From: Bacilli bacterium
GTDB lineage: Bacteria; Bacillota_I; Bacilli_A; ML615J-28; CAG-313
Reading direction: 5' to 3'
DNA: 45,342 nucleotides
Assembly: GCA_017463365.1 (NCBI GenBank)
Contig: JAFTPH010000056.1
Span: 1 to 45,342 of the forward strand
Shown: one piece after another, positions 9,884-38,556 of the stretch
How positions within the stretch are numbered: position 1 is the stretch's first letter
How the letters are laid out: each line of letters opens with the position of its first letter
Program-made: the position numbers and the translations under genes
The notes under the pieces: generated by a model
Databases searched by the model: none
Seen by the model: the letters and a program-made list of their open reading frames with translations, nothing else
Told to the model about the DNA's origin: nothing

Positions 9884-10708
9884 ATGAATTTTGGAAAAAA
9901 TTTGACAATGATTAGAAAACAAAAAAATATTAGTCAAGAAGAGCTTGCATTTATAGTAGGTGTTTCTAGACAAACAATTTATACTTGGGAAGCAGATATT
10001 GCAACTCCTAATGTAGTAATGTTAAAAAAACTTTCTAAAGCATTAGATGTATCGATTGATGAACTAGTGTCAGGTCCTACTATTGATACATTGCCAAAAA
10101 AGATGAAAAAATACTCACTTGAATATTTATCTGAACATGATTCAATAAGTGTAGTAAGCCTTTTGGATTGGTTTATAAAACTTGAAATAGGTAATGAAAT
10201 ATGTTTCGGGTTATATGATGATGGAATTAAAGATTATTCATATCATCTTACTGTTCTTAATGAAATAATTATTCACGATAAGAAGGGATATGAAGTTTTA
10301 GTTGAACAGTATAATAAGGATATGATTAAAGATAAATGTTATTCTCTTGTTGCAAGACACGAAGATGATGTAATGCAGTTTCTGGCTAAAATTGATCTTG
10401 TAGATGGAATGAAAAAGATTCAAACATTCAAAGATGAAGAATTTATTAAAAATTGGGGTGGAGAAACAAGAACATATTTTGAATACCCTAAAAGTTATTT
10501 ATTAAAATATGGCGATAAAGAATATAAAACAATTCAAATAACATATTTTGTAAATGATGATATTTATATTGAATGCTATTTAAATGAAGAATTTGAAACA
10601 TTGTTAGAAAGAAGATTTGATAAAGATAGACCTTCAAATGAAACAAGAGATATTAATGGAAAAACATATGGTTATTATTATGAAACAATTACTGATAGAT
10701 TAAAATAA
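9884..10708 (+). CDS. XRE-family regulator with unknown C-terminal domain
   Basis: Residues 1-60 form a Cro/C1-type helix-turn-helix (NLTMIRKQKNISQEELAFIVGVSRQTIYTWEADIATPN). Residues 75-274 are a soluble domain I do not recognise, rich in aromatic and acidic residues and ending GKTYGYYYETITDRLK. RBS AAAGGAGGAAC precedes the ATG. Two dyads downstream of its promoter suggest autoregulation. The next gene has its own strong promoter, so this is a one-gene unit. The C-terminal domain is likely a sensor or interaction module. Confidence 0.8.
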   Translation: MNFGKNLTMIRKQKNISQEELAFIVGVSRQTIYTWEADIATPNVVMLKKLSKALDVSIDELVSGPTIDTLPKKMKKYSLEYLSEHDSISVVSLLDWFIKLEIGNEICFGLYDDGIKDYSYHLTVLNEIIIHDKKGYEVLVEQYNKDMIKDKCYSLVARHEDDVMQFLAKIDLVDGMKKIQTFKDEEFIKNWGGETRTYFEYPKSYLLKYGDKEYKTIQITYFVNDDIYIECYLNEEFETLLERRFDKDRPSNETRDINGKTYGYYYETITDRLK

Positions 10709-10764
10709 ATGTATAAATATAATTATTTTGCATATAATAAATTGAAGAGAAAAGATTATATGTC

Positions 10765-10793
10765 TTGACTTTCCGCGATAAATACTGTATAAT
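10765..10793 (+). promoter_or_regulatory. Strong promoter of the Abi leader
   Basis: TTGACT (10765-10770), 17 bases, TATAAT (10788-10793): the closest match to the vegetative consensus in the window. Transcription would start near 10800, directly before the structured leader. Confidence 0.85.
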
Positions 10794-10806
10794 TGTATTG
10801 ATCATT

Positions 10807-10876
10807 GGGTTGGTGTACCGGTGGGTGTTGGTCTTTGGACTTCATCGGAGCCAACTCTTTTTATTTAGGAGAGTTG
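10807..10876 (+). ncRNA. Structured, bistable leader upstream of Abi gene
   Basis: Two helices compete. Helix A pairs GTTGG (10809-10813) with CCAAC (10851-10855), extended by CCG (10818-10820) with CGG (10846-10848), with a small GTC/GAC hairpin inside. Helix B pairs CAACTCT (10852-10858) with AGAGTTG (10870-10876) and buries part of the Shine-Dalgarno AGGAGAG. Both use 10852-10855, so they exclude each other. Rfam describes an abiF RNA upstream of Abi_2 genes; I recall this and cannot check the match. The Gly/Cys/Trp-rich reading through this stretch is therefore probably not protein. Confidence 0.65.
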
Positions 10877-10879
10877 AGT

Positions 10880-11695
10880 ATGTTTTCAGATATTAATAAA
10901 CAAATAACTATCCTTCAATCTAGGGGATTAAAAATAGATAACAACAGTAAAACAAGAAATTTATTGATAGACCATAATTATTATAATGTAATAAATGGAT
11001 TTAAAGAACCATTTCTTGATAAATCACAATCCACAGAAGTTTATAAAACTTGAACAACTTTTGAAGAAATTTTTGCATTATATGAATTTGATAGAAAACT
11101 TAGAAATTTAATTTTGGATTATACATTATTAATTGAAAATAGTTTAAAGACAAAAATAGCATATGAATTTGCCAAGAAATATGGAGAATATGCATATTTA
11201 AATTCAAGTAGTTATACTTTCAAAACTCATCAACAAAAGAATAATACGATTAAACTTTTAGCTAGAATAATGGATAAAATTGAAAAAGAATCTAATAGTG
11301 GAATTTACTCACACTTTATTTCATTAGGAAGAGAAATTCCTGTCTGGGCCGCAACAAGTTTTTTTGATTTTGGGACAGTGAGAACTTTTTATTCATGTTT
11401 AGAAGATTCATTAGCTTTTGATATTGCTAATTATTACTCTATTAACAAAACTGAATTGATTTCTTTTTTGTCCAACATAAATATGTATCGTAATGTATGT
11501 GCACATGATAATAGAATAATGAGATATATGATATTTAAGAAAGAATTTAGTATTAGTAATACAAAAATACATAGCAATATGAATTTAAATACTGATTCTA
11601 AAAATGAATATATAGTTGGAAAGAGATTATTACTATTTCTAAGCAATAGTTTGATTTGTTTTAAATTAAATATCATAAAAAATTATAGGAACTAG
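10880..11695 (+). pseudogene. Abi_2 (AbiD/AbiF-like) abortive-infection gene interrupted by TGA
   Basis: Abi_2 proteins abort phage infection. Translation from ATG 10880 (RBS AGGAGAG) gives ITILQSRGLKIDN..NYYNVINGFKEPFLD..., then an in-frame TGA at 11051-11053, and then, in the same frame, TTFEEIFALYEFDRKLRNLIL and RNVCAHDNRIM, the conserved Abi_2 core with its RNxxxH motif. In relatives the position of the TGA is usually Gly before TTFEEI, so a single GGA-to-TGA change explains it. Without readthrough a 57-aa fragment would be made. The rest of the frame is intact, so the loss is recent or the codon is suppressed. Confidence 0.8.
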
Positions 11696-11724
11696 TACAG
11701 ACAGATTATGCTAGTTCTTTTTTT
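11689..11724 (+). terminator. Terminator overlapping the Abi stop codon
   Basis: GAACTAG (11689-11695, including the TAG stop) pairs with CTAGTTC (11711-11717), followed by a run of T. Confidence 0.8.
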
Positions 11725-12038
11725 GTGTTCATAGACATAATAGACTTATAGATTATTAATAAAATTATAGTTATGAACAAAAAGATGCATTGTGAAACAT
11801 TTTGTTCTCTAAAACCTTAATATGCAACATTTCGTCCACCACACACATTAGAAAAACAAACAAGTTTGTTTGTCTATAAGTCATAATACTTATAGTTCAA
11901 ATATATAGGTATAATCCCTAATTTATAAGATTTTGTTCCATATTTGGAGCAATTTTTTTATTTTACAGAGAAATGTTTAGATTTTGCAATTAGGGAATTT
12001 TGTCAGTTCATGTTATTTGAATTATTTTTTTAAAATAG
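11725..12038. other. Gene-free spacer with inverted repeats
   Basis: I see no gene here. It holds a perfect palindrome, AAACAAAC-AA-GTTTGTTT (about 11853-11870), and a 10-base inverted pair GACTTATAGA / TCTATAAGTC about 120 bases apart. It also holds two short GAAACATTTTGT-like motifs that recur near 9603 and 9655. Function unknown. Confidence 0.4.
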
Positions 12039-18390: not shown

Positions 18391-18475
18391 TGGAAGTTTT
18401 GTTAAAAATATGATAAAATAATTTAGAAAAACACTTCACTTTTTTTAAATTTTGTTACTATATAAGTGAAAGGAG
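18391..18475 (+). promoter_or_regulatory. Promoter and leader of sigma-like gene 1
   Basis: TGGAAG (18391-18396), 17 bases, TAAAAT (18414-18419) with TG one base upstream. The leader then carries ACTATATAAGTGAA (18457-18470) directly before the GGAG ribosome site. The same string occurs before the third sigma-like gene, and a variant before the second. Confidence 0.65.
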
Positions 18476-18483
18476 ATATCATT

Positions 18484-20040
18484 ATGCAAAATAAGAAACA
18501 ATTAAAAGAATTAATAGCTAATGAATATTTAAATAGATTCTTAACATTCTATATAAGCAAAACATCATCAGTACAAGATGCAGAGGACTTATCACAAAAG
18601 GCTGCCTGTGAATGTTTAGATGCACTTGATCGTGTTGATGAAATAAAAAATATTAATGCTTATTTTTGGAGTGTTGCTCATAATGTATATAAAAACTATT
18701 TAAATAGAAAAAATAATCATATTCTAGATGATGATTATTGTAAAATGCAAATAGCAGATATTAGTTATTATGAAGATAATGAAAAGCAAGTGTTACATAA
18801 TGATATTAGAAAATCTCTAAGTATCCTTTCAGGATTATATCGTAAGATAATAGTACTTTATTATTATCACGAATTAAAAATTAAAGATATATCCGAAAAA
18901 CTTAATATTAGCCAAGATATGGTTAAATATTATCTATCTAATGGTAAGAAAAAATTAAAGGAGATTTATATTATGAATAAAGAAATCGGTGAATTAAGTT
19001 TTAATCCTAAAGATTTTTCAATATATTATTCTGGTATTGATTTTACTAGTGTTAATGTTTGGGAGTTATTTAAAAGAAAGTTACCTTGTCAAATTGCATT
19101 AGCGTGCTATGCAAAACCTAAAACAGTTAGTGAAATTTCAAGTCAAGTTGGATGCAGCAGTTGTTTCATAGAAGATGAACTTTCAATTTTATTGAAGGCA
19201 GGAGTATTAACTCAAAAAGTAAAAGATAAGTATCAAACTAATTTTTACATTATTAGTGAAGAAGAACTTAGTATTGTTGATGATTTATATAAGAAGATGT
19301 ATAATGAGTATACAAAAGAAGTAAGTAAAGTTTTTGATGAACATTTTGAAAAAATTAAAAATACAGGAATTTATAATTATAATGCTACAATGGATCAATA
19401 TAAATGGATATTTGCAGATAGAGTAGCAGATATGGATAGAAGAAACATGTTTACAAAAGATTCTGATTATCCGAAAATCCTATCATGTGGTGCAAGAGGA
19501 CTTGTATTTGGACTAGAAGCACCTACTCCAAAAGGTACTTGTGGTCAAACTCCGACATATTTAAATAACCATACATTATGGGCTAGAGATTTATGGATGA
19601 AAAAAGGTTATAGTTCGAACCAACCTATCTTAAGGGATAAAAAAGCAGCCCAAACAGTTATTGATGTTTATAATGGAATTGTTGATGATAACAATGAAGA
19701 ATTATATGCTTATTTAATTAAAAACAATATTTTAGTAAAAGATAGCGGTGTTCTAAAAACTAATATTGCATATTTAAATAAAGAGTTTTTAGAGTTAATG
19801 AAAAACATTAATAAAGATTTATACGTTAAATTAGAAAAGTCTACTTGTGAAATTAAAGAATATCTTACTAAAGTATTTGATAAATCAATACCTAATAATT
19901 TAAAAAAATATGCAAAAGGATATGTTATTACCCTTATGCAGTTCTTTGCTGGAAACAAGATTATTGAAGAATTAATTGCTAATAATTTCTTAAATGATAA
20001 ATTAGAAAATATTCAAATAAGCTATTTTATTAATAAATAA
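18484..20040 (+). CDS. Long sigma-70/ECF-like regulator with C-terminal extension (paralogue 1)
   Basis: The first 165 residues form an ECF sigma factor. Region 2 contains SVQDAEDLSQKAACECLDAL..INAYFWSVAHNVYKNYL, and region 4 is LSGLYRKIIVLYYYHELKIKDISEKLNISQDMVKYYLSNGKKKLKE. A further winged-helix-like segment (about 205-260, KTVSEISSQVGCSSCFIEDELSILLKAGVLTQ) is followed by some 260 residues I cannot assign. At 518 aa it is more than twice the normal ECF length. The start at 18484 follows AAAGGAG. It should direct RNA polymerase to its own promoters, and the extension may sense a signal. There is no adjacent anti-sigma gene. Confidence 0.78.
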   Translation: MQNKKQLKELIANEYLNRFLTFYISKTSSVQDAEDLSQKAACECLDALDRVDEIKNINAYFWSVAHNVYKNYLNRKNNHILDDDYCKMQIADISYYEDNEKQVLHNDIRKSLSILSGLYRKIIVLYYYHELKIKDISEKLNISQDMVKYYLSNGKKKLKEIYIMNKEIGELSFNPKDFSIYYSGIDFTSVNVWELFKRKLPCQIALACYAKPKTVSEISSQVGCSSCFIEDELSILLKAGVLTQKVKDKYQTNFYIISEEELSIVDDLYKKMYNEYTKEVSKVFDEHFEKIKNTGIYNYNATMDQYKWIFADRVADMDRRNMFTKDSDYPKILSCGARGLVFGLEAPTPKGTCGQTPTYLNNHTLWARDLWMKKGYSSNQPILRDKKAAQTVIDVYNGIVDDNNEELYAYLIKNNILVKDSGVLKTNIAYLNKEFLELMKNINKDLYVKLEKSTCEIKEYLTKVFDKSIPNNLKKYAKGYVITLMQFFAGNKIIEELIANNFLNDKLENIQISYFINK

Positions 20041-24946: not shown

Positions 24947-26167
24947 CTACTTACATTTTTGGTATGTGTAAGTTGAACTCGTCTTGTGCATATAGAAGAT
25001 TATTCTTACTAGTTGGTTAGCACAAGCCATAGACGCAACTTTAGGCTTAAGAGGGTTTAATTGGTGCGTCTTTTTTTGATATTTAGTTTTAATAGCATTA
25101 GGTTCTCTATTAGCTTTAATTAAACTAGATACCATTAAATGAAGAATAGTTCTAAGACGCTTATTACCTTTTTTAGACATTTTAAGATGAAGACCATCTT
25201 TATCGCCAGATTGTCTAATCATAGGATCAATACCCGCATAAGCAACGATTTGCTTATAATTTGTAAATCTAGATATATCACCAAGTTCAGCAATGAACTT
25301 ACATGTTAATATATCTTGAATTCCCGGAAGTGAATGTACAAGATTATAAAGAGGGACTTTCTTAGCAAGTTCATTCATTTGAATAACTGTATATTTTATT
25401 TGATTTAGATAATATTCTATTTGAGTGATGTATGAAAGAAGCATAATGATATCTGGCTCAGTAACAGAGCAACCTGATACAATTTCATTAACTAAAGGAG
25501 TAAGTTTTTTAACTTTAGATGAAGTCCAACTTTCTAAGTGATTCCATTTTTCTTTTAAGGTTTCAATAATTTTATCTTCTGATTTTGAAGTATAAATAGA
25601 TGGATGAGGAAATTCTTTTAAGAAAGTTAAAGATTCATCACTATAAATACTAGTAAATAACTTTTTATAGTTTGGGTAGATAACAGCTAAAGTTTCTCTA
25701 AAGTTTACTTTTATTTTAATTAAATGTTTCATACAAGTATCATAGTATCTATTTAGTTTTCTTAAATTAGAATATGATTCATCTTCAGAGTAGAACATAC
25801 CTAAATTATTGGTATAGAAAAGTTTAGATAAACTTAAGCAATCTCTAGCATCAGTTTTTTGCTCTCTAATTTCGCTGCTTCTGGCTTTAGCAGCTCTTAA
25901 TGGAGCAACAATATGATACTTTAGATTTTGTGATATAAGGAATTTTTCAAGGGACTTATGATAAATTCCAGTAAATTCAAAAATAATTAAAGGAGATTCG
26001 TTTGTTTTACTCTCAATTAAATCTTTAAGAGTTAAAATAAATTGATATCCTTGTTTAGTGTGTCTCATAGTTCTAGCTTTACTTAAAGGTTTATTTGATC
26101 CAATAAATCCTTGAATGTGACTTTTATTTTGAGATACATCAATAGTAATACAGGTATTTTGATTCAT
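24947..26167 (-). CDS. IS110-family transposase (DEDD/Ser recombinase)
   Basis: This 406-aa recombinase uses a RuvC-like DEDD domain and a C-terminal serine domain, guided by a bridge RNA in characterised relatives. The DEDD residues are visible: D10 in ITIDVSQ, E64 in IIFEFTG, D106 and D109 in KTDARDC. The C-terminal part has LPGIQDILTCKFIAELGDISRF, YAGIDPMIRQSGD (with the catalytic Ser) and KKGNKRLRTIL. I prefer the start at 26167, since AAAGGA lies at correct spacing; ATG 26185 is in frame upstream without such a site. It appears complete. Confidence 0.93.
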   Translation of the reverse strand: MNQNTCITIDVSQNKSHIQGFIGSNKPLSKARTMRHTKQGYQFILTLKDLIESKTNESPLIIFEFTGIYHKSLEKFLISQNLKYHIVAPLRAAKARSSEIREQKTDARDCLSLSKLFYTNNLGMFYSEDESYSNLRKLNRYYDTCMKHLIKIKVNFRETLAVIYPNYKKLFTSIYSDESLTFLKEFPHPSIYTSKSEDKIIETLKEKWNHLESWTSSKVKKLTPLVNEIVSGCSVTEPDIIMLLSYITQIEYYLNQIKYTVIQMNELAKKVPLYNLVHSLPGIQDILTCKFIAELGDISRFTNYKQIVAYAGIDPMIRQSGDKDGLHLKMSKKGNKRLRTILHLMVSSLIKANREPNAIKTKYQKKTHQLNPLKPKVASMACANQLVRIIFYMHKTSSTYTYQKCK

Positions 26168-26326
26168 AACAACACATCCTTTCATTTTGCCTGTACAAGT
26201 GGTTGATAACTTCCTAACTCAATTGAGTTTATTCTTCAAGCCTATATTCGCAAGTCATACAGGTTCAATACTAAAAAGTATAGTCCTAAAAACATATAAA
26301 CAGGTTTACAAAGAAAAAGGAAGGGC
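26168..26326 (-). ncRNA. Candidate IS110 bridge RNA
   Basis: In IS110/IS621 elements the 5' non-coding end encodes the bridge RNA that pairs with target and donor DNA. Here a good minus-strand promoter ends at 26332, so a transcript would run from about 26326 to the transposase start, about 160 bases. It contains hairpin-forming segments, such as ACCTGT with ACAGG-type partners and the palindrome ACTCAATTGAGT (near 26220). The two guide loops cannot be assigned without folding and element ends. Confidence 0.5.
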
Positions 26327-35023: not shown

Positions 35024-35062
35024 GTCAGTTAACCAAACAACAAAATGGTTAGCTGACTTTTT
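35024..35062 (+). terminator. Terminator
   Basis: GTCAGTTAACCA (35024-35035) pairs with TGGTTAGCTGAC (35046-35057), with one G-T pair, then five T. Confidence 0.88.
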
Positions 35063-35065
35063 ATA

Positions 35066-35139
35066 TTGAAATATAATTTTAAAAATAGTATAATATTTTT
35101 AGAAATATGCGAACCATTTTTAATATTTACACACTATAT
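35066..35139 (+). promoter_or_regulatory. Promoter and leader of sigma-like gene 2
   Basis: TTGAAA (35066-35071), 17 bases, TATAAT (35089-35094). The leader then carries AACC (35112-35115), 18 bases, and CTATAT (35134-35139) inside the dyad TTACAC..GGTGTAA. AACC-N18-CTATAT recurs before sigma-like gene 3 and could be an ECF-type promoter read by these factors themselves. Confidence 0.6.
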
Positions 35140-35161
35140 GGGTGTAAGAGGTAAAAATTTT

Positions 35162-36799
35162 ATGAATGATAAAGAACAATTAATTGAACAATTATTAACA
35201 CAAATGGATAAAGTATTCTTTTATTGTGTGAAAAGATGTAATAGTAGAAGTGATGCCGAAGACTTATCACAAGATATACTACTTGACATTATGATAAACA
35301 TTAATAAGGGAATTAAGATTGAAAACTTTGATTATTATATTTGGCAAATATGTAAAAACCATTATAGTAAATATGTGGCCAAAAAAGTAAAAGATAGAGA
35401 AAATATAATGTTTGTTGAAGAGTTTGATAAACACGGGATTGAAGAAAATTCTTTAGACAAATTAATTAATTCAGAAAAAGTATCGATGATTAATGCCGCA
35501 ATCAAATTATTATCAAGTGATTATTCAGAAATACTTTATTCATATTATATAGAAGATAGATCGTTATCATTCATAGCAGAAAAATTAAATTTACCTCTTG
35601 GAACAGTCAAAAGAAGACTCTTTGACATAAGAAATAAACTTAAGGAGTATTTAAAAATGGAAAGATTAAATGGAAGAAAAGCATTTGTACCTAAAAAATT
35701 TGAAACACATAGAAGTGGTGGAGCAAATTTAAATCCCGAAGATTATACAAATGGATTAATTGAGCAAAACTTATTAATGCACTCATATGGTAATCCATGT
35801 AGTTTAGAAGACTATTCATTGGAAATGGGAATAAGCTTACCATATATTGAAAATATTGTTAATAGTTTAGAACACGCAACTTTATTAATAAAAGATGAAA
35901 ATGGTAAGTATTTAACTAATTTCATAATAGTAGATAAAAACATAGATAATAAAGTAGCAAAATTAGTTAAACAAAATTCAAGAGAATATACAAAATTGAT
36001 AGTTGAGTATTGTAAAAAACATTTTAATGAGTGGAAGAAATTAGTCGATAATCCTTTACTTGATGACAATAAATTAATGTGGTCATACCTATTTAGCACA
36101 AACAGAAAAGTTGAATATTTAGATTGTACTAAAGAAGAAACAGTAAAAAATATGAGAAAACATAGTCATATTGTTGAAGGTGGTAGTTGGGATTTTAGTA
36201 TGTCTGAAGATTATGAATCAGAGTTCAATACTTTTTATATTAATGAATGTATGGCTGGAAATGGTGTAATAGGAGTACAAGGTTTATTATATCCAGGTCA
36301 AAGAAAAATAGAAGGTGTTAATTCAGAAGCCTTAAAATGTATTAGATGGGATAATAGCGCAAACTGGAATGCTAATTTTGAATTGTTTGGGTATTTATTA
36401 AAAAATAAAAATATAAAATACTCAGATTGTGTATATACGCTAAAATCAGCAGTTGATGAAATGGTAGAAGAAAATTACTTAAAAATAGAAAATGATAATA
36501 TAAAGTTTAATTTTGTTTTATTAGATTTTGAAAAAGGAAAGATTAGTAAAGAAGATGAATATAGTGATGAACTAATTCCAGCAAAACAAAAAAGAAAAGA
36601 AATTACAAAAAAAATTGAGGAAATATTTAAAGATGTTATACCAGAATATTTATATAAAGATTTAGATTATATCGCTAATTCATACTTTATAGAAAAGATG
36701 AGACAACATATAGTAATGGCCTTTGAAGAAGCGGGATTAATTGAACCTGTTAATGAGAAAAGATTTGTTTATAATATGTTTTGTTGGGAAAGAAAGTAA
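35162..36799 (+). CDS. Long sigma-70/ECF-like regulator with C-terminal extension (paralogue 2)
   Basis: Sigma region 2 is at about residues 15-80 (VFFYCVKRCNSRSDAEDLSQDILLDIM...YYIWQICKNHYSKY). Region 4 is at about 115-165 (AIKLLSSDYSEILYSYYIEDRSLSFIAEKLNLPLGTVKRRLFDIRNKLKEYL). A winged-helix-like part follows (about 200-260, SYGNPCSLEDYSLEMGISLPYIENIV), then about 280 unassigned residues. The total is 545 aa. It is clearly a paralogue of the next gene, sharing VFFYCVKRCNSR and NPCS.EDYS.E.GIS. The start at 35162 follows AAGAGG and aligns with paralogue 3. No anti-sigma gene is adjacent. Confidence 0.8.
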   Translation: MNDKEQLIEQLLTQMDKVFFYCVKRCNSRSDAEDLSQDILLDIMININKGIKIENFDYYIWQICKNHYSKYVAKKVKDRENIMFVEEFDKHGIEENSLDKLINSEKVSMINAAIKLLSSDYSEILYSYYIEDRSLSFIAEKLNLPLGTVKRRLFDIRNKLKEYLKMERLNGRKAFVPKKFETHRSGGANLNPEDYTNGLIEQNLLMHSYGNPCSLEDYSLEMGISLPYIENIVNSLEHATLLIKDENGKYLTNFIIVDKNIDNKVAKLVKQNSREYTKLIVEYCKKHFNEWKKLVDNPLLDDNKLMWSYLFSTNRKVEYLDCTKEETVKNMRKHSHIVEGGSWDFSMSEDYESEFNTFYINECMAGNGVIGVQGLLYPGQRKIEGVNSEALKCIRWDNSANWNANFELFGYLLKNKNIKYSDCVYTLKSAVDEMVEENYLKIENDNIKFNFVLLDFEKGKISKEDEYSDELIPAKQKRKEITKKIEEIFKDVIPEYLYKDLDYIANSYFIEKMRQHIVMAFEEAGLIEPVNEKRFVYNMFCWERK

Positions 36800-36936: not shown

Positions 36937-38556
36937 ATGGATATAATTATGAACAAGAATGAGTTAAAAGAAAAAGTAGAAGATTATGCTAGTAAAGTAT
37001 TTTTCTATTGTGTTAAAAGATGTAATAGTAGAATGGATGCTGAAGATTTATCACAAACAATCCTTTTAGAGATAATCCAAAATATTGATAAAGGTGCACG
37101 TATTGATAATTTAGATTATTACATATGGGGTGTTTGTAAAAATCAATATAATATGTATTTAAGAAAAACTATTAAAGATAGAAATAATCTTGAATATAAA
37201 GAAGATATTGGTGATGCAGATGATTCTAAAACAGCCCTTGATGAATTGTTAGAAGATGAAAAAATCAGAATGATAAGTCAAGCTATCAAATTATTGAGTA
37301 AAGATTATGCAGAAATACTTTACGCTTATTATGTAGAAGATAAAACTTTAAAGTTCATAGCAGAAGAATTAAATATGCCTCTTGGAACAGCTAAATGGAA
37401 ATTAGCTGAAGTTCGAAAAAAGTTAAAGGAGTATTTAGATATGGAAAAACTAAATGGAAAGAAAGCATATGTACCAAAAAGTTTTAGTGGTATTATGGCT
37501 TATACAGATGATATGGATTATAATGTTCATGATGAAACCTCGTCATTGTTAGTGAAAAACTTATTATATCATTCTTATGATAATCCTTGTAGTATAGAAG
37601 ATTATTCAATTGAATTAGGTATATCAATTACTTATATTAAAGATTTCGTAGATAAATTAACAAATATGCAATTACTAAAAAAAGTAGAGAATAATAAATA
37701 CGTAACAACTATTGCATTTATAGATGCTAGAACGCAAAGAGAAGTACTTGATATTATTAGATATAGTATTTCTGATTATCAAAATGCAGTAATTGAATTT
37801 GCTAAAGAACATATAACCGAATATAAAGCAATGTTAGAAGATAATAGTATAGAAGATAATTTGTTAATGTGGACTTTAATTTTTGAAATTATTAATTATA
37901 GTGAACATAAGGGTAATATTGTTTATACAAAAAGCTTTACAAAAGGAAAATGGGAATATTATATGGCTGAAGATGATTATAAGGTACATCCTGATGAATT
38001 TTTCATATCATGTAATGGAAGAGAACAAAATTATAATATTTTTATTTGTGCTTTTCCTTCTTCTCCATTAGAGTTTTCTAATGAAGTGGGTAAAAGATTA
38101 AACTATGGAAAAGCGGCAACAGGCCATTTTGAAAATCTTGCTGTTTTTAATTATATATTAAATAACGATGTATTATATAGTGATTTAGAAGATTGTTATG
38201 AAAACGATGTAAAAGAATATATAAAGTTAGGTTACTTTAAAGTTGTCGATGGTTTAGTCAAAGCTAATGTTCCTGTCATTGATGACAAAAAATTTTCTAG
38301 TTTTATGAGTAAAGTTAGAAAAAATGTAAAATTAAAAGAATCCTTTTTAAAGATGTATAATTTAGTTAGACGCGTTATAGAAAAAAATATTCCAGAATAT
38401 TTAATGGGGCAAAAAGATTTTATTGTGTCATGTTCTGCTAATACAATTAGATCATTAGTAATAAGTAAAGCATATGAACAAGGATTGCTATCTTTTGGTG
38501 AAAATGATGATTACTTTGTTTACAATATGTACATAAGAAGAAAGGAAATAATTTAA
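36937..38556 (+). CDS. Long sigma-70/ECF-like regulator with C-terminal extension (paralogue 3)
   Basis: Sigma region 2 is at residues 20-80 (VFFYCVKRCNSRMDAEDLSQTILLEII...YYIWGVCKNQYNMYL). Region 4 is at 112-168 (ISQAIKLLSKDYAEILYAYYVEDKTLKFIAEELNMPLGTAKWKLAEVRKKLKEYL). A winged-helix-like segment is at 205-260 (NLLYHSYDNPCSIEDYSIELGISITYI), and about 280 residues without a recognised fold complete the 539 aa. RBS AAGAGG precedes ATG 36937. An S41 protease gene follows after 4 bases, so the two are co-expressed. Confidence 0.8.
   Translation: MDIIMNKNELKEKVEDYASKVFFYCVKRCNSRMDAEDLSQTILLEIIQNIDKGARIDNLDYYIWGVCKNQYNMYLRKTIKDRNNLEYKEDIGDADDSKTALDELLEDEKIRMISQAIKLLSKDYAEILYAYYVEDKTLKFIAEELNMPLGTAKWKLAEVRKKLKEYLDMEKLNGKKAYVPKSFSGIMAYTDDMDYNVHDETSSLLVKNLLYHSYDNPCSIEDYSIELGISITYIKDFVDKLTNMQLLKKVENNKYVTTIAFIDARTQREVLDIIRYSISDYQNAVIEFAKEHITEYKAMLEDNSIEDNLLMWTLIFEIINYSEHKGNIVYTKSFTKGKWEYYMAEDDYKVHPDEFFISCNGREQNYNIFICAFPSSPLEFSNEVGKRLNYGKAATGHFENLAVFNYILNNDVLYSDLEDCYENDVKEYIKLGYFKVVDGLVKANVPVIDDKKFSSFMSKVRKNVKLKESFLKMYNLVRRVIEKNIPEYLMGQKDFIVSCSANTIRSLVISKAYEQGLLSFGENDDYFVYNMYIRRKEII

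What the first reader, a model, noticed from the sequence alone, without database searches (positions are those of the whole stretch)
10800..10880. Bistable leader that can hide or expose the Abi ribosome site
GTTGG (10809-10813) and AGAGTTG (10870-10876) compete for the same CCAACTCT segment (10851-10858). The second pairing covers the Shine-Dalgarno. A strong promoter starts just before. This looks like an RNA switch or a companion ncRNA for an abortive-infection gene, perhaps the abiF RNA class.
Basis: partly seen in the sequence, partly recalled or inferred. Interest (0 to 1): 0.62.

Follow-up and report, generated by a model that had tools for sequence, protein, structure and literature searches.

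The report
RNA antitoxin ahead of dead AbiF

Summary
The pairings reported at 10809-10813/10851-10855 and 10851-10858/10870-10876 are both present, but they are not equal partners. The first is part of a 7-bp helix (10807-10813/10851-10857) that closes a 51-nt hairpin followed by a U-tract: a small RNA with its own promoter and an intrinsic-terminator-like end. Eight copies (seven genomes) show covariation in its inner helices. The second pairing, over the Shine-Dalgarno, is absent from stand-alone copies and mismatched in the only copy with an intact gene, where its predicted probability is near zero. The bistable switch is therefore not supported. The RNA does not match Rfam abiF (RF03085), but its position does: 34 of 38 distinct viral Abi_2 genes carry a hairpin plus U-tract just before the start codon. 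Best reading: a new sequence and structure class of AbiF antitoxin RNA (type III toxin-antitoxin) that also attenuates transcription. Four well-paired copies have no Abi_2 gene beside them, and three of those genomes show none at all. RNA-protein binding and any orphan function remain inference.

The parts
10765..10793 (+). sigma-70/SigA-type promoter TTGACT-17-TATAAT of the RNA/abi transcript
   Evidence: 11/12; -35/-10 at the same distance from the RNA in G122, G016:C43, G004 and G033 copies, weaker in the others
10798..10863 (+). conserved RNA unit (66 columns, model R1/R2); predicted transcript start about 10800
10807..10813 (+). 5' arm of outer helix GGGUUGG, pairs with 10851-10857
   Evidence: 100% of cells paired in 8 copies, one-sided changes only
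10818..10823 (+). 5' arm of middle helix CCGGUG, pairs with 10843-10848 (CAUCGG); covaries (CUGAUG/CAUCAG, CUAGUG/CACUAG, CUGCUG/CAGCAG)
   Evidence: three pairs with changes on both sides
10830..10841 (+). apical hairpin GGUC-UUUG-GACU (arms 10830-10833 and 10838-10841); one two-sided change in G033
10851..10857 (+). 3' arm of outer helix CCAACUC
10858..10866 (+). U-tract (UUUUUAUUU) directly after the outer helix; with it forms an intrinsic-terminator-like end
   Evidence: sequence; a U-rich stretch follows the outer helix in all 8 copies
10867..10877 (+). Shine-Dalgarno AGGAGAG and flank; can pair with 10852-10861, at an energy comparable to the outer-helix form in the window copy
10880..11695 (+). 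abi_2 (AbiD/AbiF-like HEPN RNase) pseudogene: in-frame TGA 11051-11053; 193-bp deletion at an 11-bp direct repeat near 11616-11626 relative to the intact G122 copy
   Evidence: PF07751 E=2e-42; PADLOC AbiD E=1e-48; 8VZ6 PbAbiF E=2e-14; lesions
11690..11727 (+). probable terminator downstream of abi_2 (GAACTAG...CTAGTTC TTTTTTT); near the end of the segment shared with G122 (10692-11732)
   Evidence: sequence; alignment

Best explanation
The leader is the antitoxin-RNA half of an AbiF-type (type III) toxin-antitoxin module. A strong promoter makes a short structured RNA ending in its own terminator hairpin. Most transcripts should stop there and give free RNA; readthrough gives the abi_2 mRNA. 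The RNA is expected to bind the HEPN RNase toxin and keep it silent, as RCd22 does for AbiF of C. difficile and AbiFr for PbAbiF. Its sequence and three-helix fold are new relative to Rfam abiF. In this window the toxin gene is broken while RNA and promoter are intact, so here the RNA is a leftover or solitary antitoxin. The SD-covering pairing is a side feature of this copy, not the mechanism. Shown: the RNA unit, its covariation, the promoter and terminator signature, the same gene order at most viral AbiF genes, and the broken toxin. Inferred: attenuation, RNA-protein binding, neutralisation.
For: Eight copies of the RNA: 97.1% of pair cells standard, 4 pairs and 7 cells with two-sided changes, 0/500 shuffles reach the covariation score, slid structures fall to 24-52% paired. 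Promoter and U-tract accompany the RNA. The segment shared with G122 is promoter-RNA-abi-terminator, 93.7% identical over 939 bp. Position rule: hairpin plus U-tract within about 45 nt of the start codon in 34/38 distinct viral Abi_2 genes versus 39/190 shuffles and 6/46 other ORFs, Fisher p=6e-16 against the shuffles. The protein's only PDB match is PbAbiF 8VZ6, solved with its antitoxin ncRNA (PMC12373285, PMC12737573). The HEPN motif RNxxAH is invariant in the alignment, window copy included. C. difficile precedent: SigA promoter, RNA, terminator, readthrough to abiF, RNA neutralises the protein (PMC12373285).
Against: Only two of eight copies sit before an Abi_2 gene (one intact, one broken) and two before a short 5' remnant; four stand alone, so the link with the toxin rests on few loci plus the general rule for AbiF genes. 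No RF03085 match. Abi_2 genes of one large Bacilli family (f11) mostly have no such RNA. Terminator strength, expression and binding were not measured. Eight sequences are few for covariation, and shuffle controls do not correct for relatedness.
Confidence: 0.74

Rival explanations
1. A translational RNA switch: the leader toggles between the outer helix (SD free) and the SD-covering hairpin (SD hidden), controlled by a ligand, temperature or protein.
For: In the window copy the two folds are within 0.3 kcal/mol and the 10-bp SD complementarity beats shuffles. The G016:C43 remnant copy also keeps it in part (0.29).
Against: The G122 copy with an intact gene has a mismatch in the SD helix and pairing probability about 0; G427 also about 0. 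Stand-alone copies lack the SD arm. Median SD-arm pairing across 45 AbiF leaders is 0.02. The window gene is dead, so its leader is no longer held by selection for toxin control.
Confidence: 0.07
2. An independent trans-acting small RNA of these Bacilli, unrelated to AbiF, next to which an abi_2 gene happened to land.
For: Four well-paired copies without Abi_2 nearby, with different neighbours; G003, G004 and G016 have no PF07751 match anywhere in the assembly.
Against: Most AbiF genes carry an RNA with the same hairpin-U-tract layout in just this place, and the RNA and abi_2 are shared as one segment with G122.
Confidence: 0.13
3. Nothing but an intrinsic terminator or attenuator hairpin upstream of abi_2, without an antitoxin role.
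For: Outer helix plus U-tract is terminator-like; model R2 also picks up ordinary terminators at low score, e.g. after groEL.
Against: Inner helices covary, the apical region and the internal loop are nearly invariant, and the unit is kept with promoter-like sequence in stand-alone copies.
Confidence: 0.06

Closest known systems
RCd22-AbiF of Clostridioides difficile phi027/phiC2 (PMC12373285)
   Same: SigA-type promoter, short structured RNA, terminator, then an abi_2 HEPN toxin; the RNA lies in the toxin mRNA leader
   Different: RCd22 carries two abiF (RF03085) motifs and a separate terminator hairpin; here one larger three-helix hairpin whose outer helix is itself the terminator stem, no RF03085 match, toxin gene broken
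PbAbiF-AbiFr (8VZ6; Zilberzwige-Tal et al. 2025, as cited in PMC12737573 and PMC12373285)
   Same: homologous toxin (E=2e-14), single ncRNA per monomer in that complex
   Different: the AbiFr sequence could not be compared here; window toxin not intact
Rfam RF03085 abiF RNA
   Same: hairpin upstream of an Abi_2 gene
   Different: RF03085 is 37 nt with 6-bp and 3-bp stems, an 11-nt loop and a 6-nt 3' bulge; this RNA is 7/6/4 bp with a UUUG loop and has no match
phage PhiTE pseudo-ToxI (PMC3475682)
   Same: precedent for antitoxin RNA without its own toxin
   Different: phage-borne repeats that mimic ToxI; here single copies in bacterial assemblies, function untested

Membership tests
Rfam RF03085 abiF RNA | covariance-model score at or above gathering cut-off 37 bits | tested here: not met
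   no match at gathering threshold or at E<=10
Rfam RF03085 abiF RNA | 6-bp stem, 1-nt bulge, 3-bp stem, 11-nt loop, 6-nt 3' bulge | tested here: not met
   conserved fold is 7-, 6- and 4-bp helices with different internal loops (RF03085 consensus)
AbiF-AbiFr type III toxin-antitoxin module | Abi_2/AbiF HEPN RNase with R-x4-H motif | tested here: met
   PF07751, AbiD model, RNVCAH motif, 8VZ6 match
AbiF-AbiFr type III toxin-antitoxin module | intact toxin gene | tested here: not met
   in-frame TGA and 193-bp deletion in the window; an intact copy exists in G122
AbiF-AbiFr type III toxin-antitoxin module | structured RNA between a shared promoter and the toxin, ending in a terminator | tested here: met
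   (sequence and prediction, no transcript data)
AbiF-AbiFr type III toxin-antitoxin module | RNA binds and neutralises the toxin protein | not testable with these tools
   needs co-expression or binding assay
ToxIN/CptIN/TenpIN type III toxin-antitoxin | tandem-repeated antitoxin RNA | tested here: not met
   one copy only in the window
translational riboswitch/RNA thermometer | two conserved mutually exclusive helices, one covering the SD | tested here: not met
   SD helix mismatched or absent in relatives
translational riboswitch/RNA thermometer | ligand- or temperature-dependent change | not testable with these tools
   needs probing

The most novel reading that the evidence does not exclude
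Stand-alone copies of this RNA are functional solitary RNA antitoxins, kept by selection after the toxin was lost (for example as immunity against incoming AbiF modules). The four copies with no toxin remnant keep every pair through compensatory changes, while the two copies beside decaying abi remnants hold all four broken pairs.
Probability: 0.25. Interest if true: 0.65.

Novelty: new variant of a known kind. Interest (0 to 1): 0.45.

Why it matters
AbiF-RNA pairs are reported as the ancestors of Cas13 and its guide RNA (PMC12737573). Rfam holds one abiF RNA class, but here nearly every viral AbiF gene examined has its own short hairpin RNA in the same place, mostly unrelated in sequence. 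The window adds a defined class with covariation and a view of antitoxin RNA outliving its toxin, which makes RNA-toxin specificity and solitary RNA antitoxins directly testable.

Tried and rejected
RF03085 and all other Rfam families at the locus: only chance-level eukaryotic hits. Alternative genetic code to explain the in-frame TGA: rejected, because the intact relative has a sense codon there and a second lesion exists. DNA-level relatives of the leader in phage and plasmid collections: none. Core motif patterns in viral contigs: none. R2 on viral and other AbiF loci: no member besides the eight. Weak R1/R2 hits in G250, G022, G381, G164, G130, G566, G028, G021 and G016:C21: inspected and set aside as terminator-like or coding sequence. 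Search for abi remnants next to the stand-alone copies: none adjacent; G033 has a short abi fragment about 9.4 kb away.

Full report
OBSERVATION. The promoter TTGACT-17-TATAAT (10765-10793) is the best of the region. The leader folds better than shuffles (z=-2.35; 65-nt core z=-3.09). In the window copy the two pairings are close in energy (outer form -25.9, SD form -26.2 kcal/mol; probabilities about 0.55 and 0.42), and the 10-bp complementarity to the SD is beyond composition.

WHAT IS CONSERVED. The conserved unit is promoter, 66 nt, U-tract; in stand-alone copies similarity stops at the U-tract and does not include the SD. On the eight-sequence alignment A2, three helices (10807-10813/10851-10857; 10818-10823/10843-10848; 10830-10833/10838-10841) are 97.1% paired, with 4 pairs changed on both sides and no shuffle out of 500 reaching the covariation score; sliding the partner strand destroys the signal. 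The outer helix varies only on one side, so its support is conservation plus the U-tract, not covariation.

THE SD HELIX. Only four copies have an SD region. The G122 copy, the only one with an intact toxin gene, has a mismatch there, and the SD arm pairs with probability about 0; G427 likewise; G016:C43 0.29; window 0.42. Across 45 AbiF leaders with a terminator hairpin the median such pairing is 0.02. The bistable switch is therefore a feature of this copy, not of the system.

THE GENE. The ORF is an AbiD/AbiF-like Abi_2 HEPN protein, whose only PDB relative is PbAbiF 8VZ6. In the window it is broken twice: an in-frame TGA at 11051-11053, and a 193-bp deletion between 11-bp direct repeats at about 11616-11626 that shifts the frame. 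An intact 319-aa copy exists in G122. The segment shared with G122 runs from 10692 to 11732 and its flanks do not align, that is, promoter-RNA-abi-terminator appears to travel as a unit.

THE GENERAL RULE. I read the upstream regions of Abi_2 genes from phages, plasmids, Bacilli genomes and IMG/VR contigs. In 34 of 38 distinct viral loci a hairpin plus U-tract lies within about 45 nt of the start codon, against 39/190 dinucleotide shuffles and 6/46 other ORFs. Among 45 Abi_2 loci (37 from genomes, 8 phage or plasmid records) it was 21, against 13/74 control ORFs (p=0.0014); the scan missed three with a slightly longer gap (L002, L005, L008), and most of the negatives are one family (f11) with a -10 box directly before the gene. 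The RNAs fall into many unrelated sequence types; of the eight phage and plasmid records scanned only phiC2 reached the RF03085 cut-off (37.6 bits). Thus the window's RNA occupies the standard AbiF-antitoxin position with its own sequence class.

MECHANISM. By analogy with RCd22 (PMC12373285) and AbiFr (PMC12737573), the RNA should end at the U-tract in most transcripts, bind the toxin, and leave a little readthrough for toxin synthesis. None of this was measured here. In the window the toxin cannot be made in full, so the RNA is either a relic or a solitary antitoxin.

SOLITARY COPIES. G003, G004, G016:C10 and G033 copies have no Abi_2 beside them; G003, G004 and G016 have no PF07751 match in the whole assembly, and G033 only a fragment about 9.4 kb away. 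All four non-standard pair cells in the alignment fall in the two copies beside abi remnants (G016:C43, G427); the four lone copies are fully paired with compensatory changes. This suggests, but with so few sequences does not prove, that lone copies are under selection. Caveats: draft assemblies, small sample, and a model that favours well-paired matches. Phage pseudo-ToxI (PMC3475682) is a precedent for antitoxin RNA without toxin. Neighbours differ in each case (AbiLi/AbiLii, AbiEii and a HEPN gene at G033; a Schlafen/AlbA_2 gene at G004; DUF4417 and DUF6883 genes at G016:C10).

VERDICT. A real, conserved structured RNA; the companion-RNA idea is right in kind, the named family is not matched, the switch is not supported, and the toxin is dead in this genome.

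Noticed in passing
L003 (G000:C18) 1418-1454 and 2390-2426; L006 (G011:C18) likewise: Another Abi_2 gene of the same genome is flanked on both sides by RF03085-like hairpins (23.9 and 25.3 bits, below the 37-bit cut-off); the sequence of L006 suggests the same layout.
   Followed up: partly
L077, L080-L090, L092-L095, L097, L099: Abi_2 genes of one Bacilli family (f11) mostly lack an upstream hairpin RNA and have a -10 box directly before a short leader; perhaps a chromosomal AbiF-like branch without RNA antitoxin.
   Followed up: partly
L102-L181 upstream of the start codon: Viral AbiF genes carry many unrelated short hairpin RNAs (many sequence types by eye), apparently not covered by Rfam's single abiF family.
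   Followed up: partly
window 18466-20040, 35045-36799, 36937-38556: Three paralogous-looking proteins with sigma-70-type N-termini and long C-terminal extensions in one window.
   Followed up: no
window 24947-26239 (-): Looks like an IS110-type transposase gene, in the variable part of the window.
   Followed up: no
L100 2783-6766 (G033): Defence-like island with AbiLi/AbiLii, AbiEii and a HEPN ORF ending about 60 nt upstream of the stand-alone RNA copy.
   Followed up: partly
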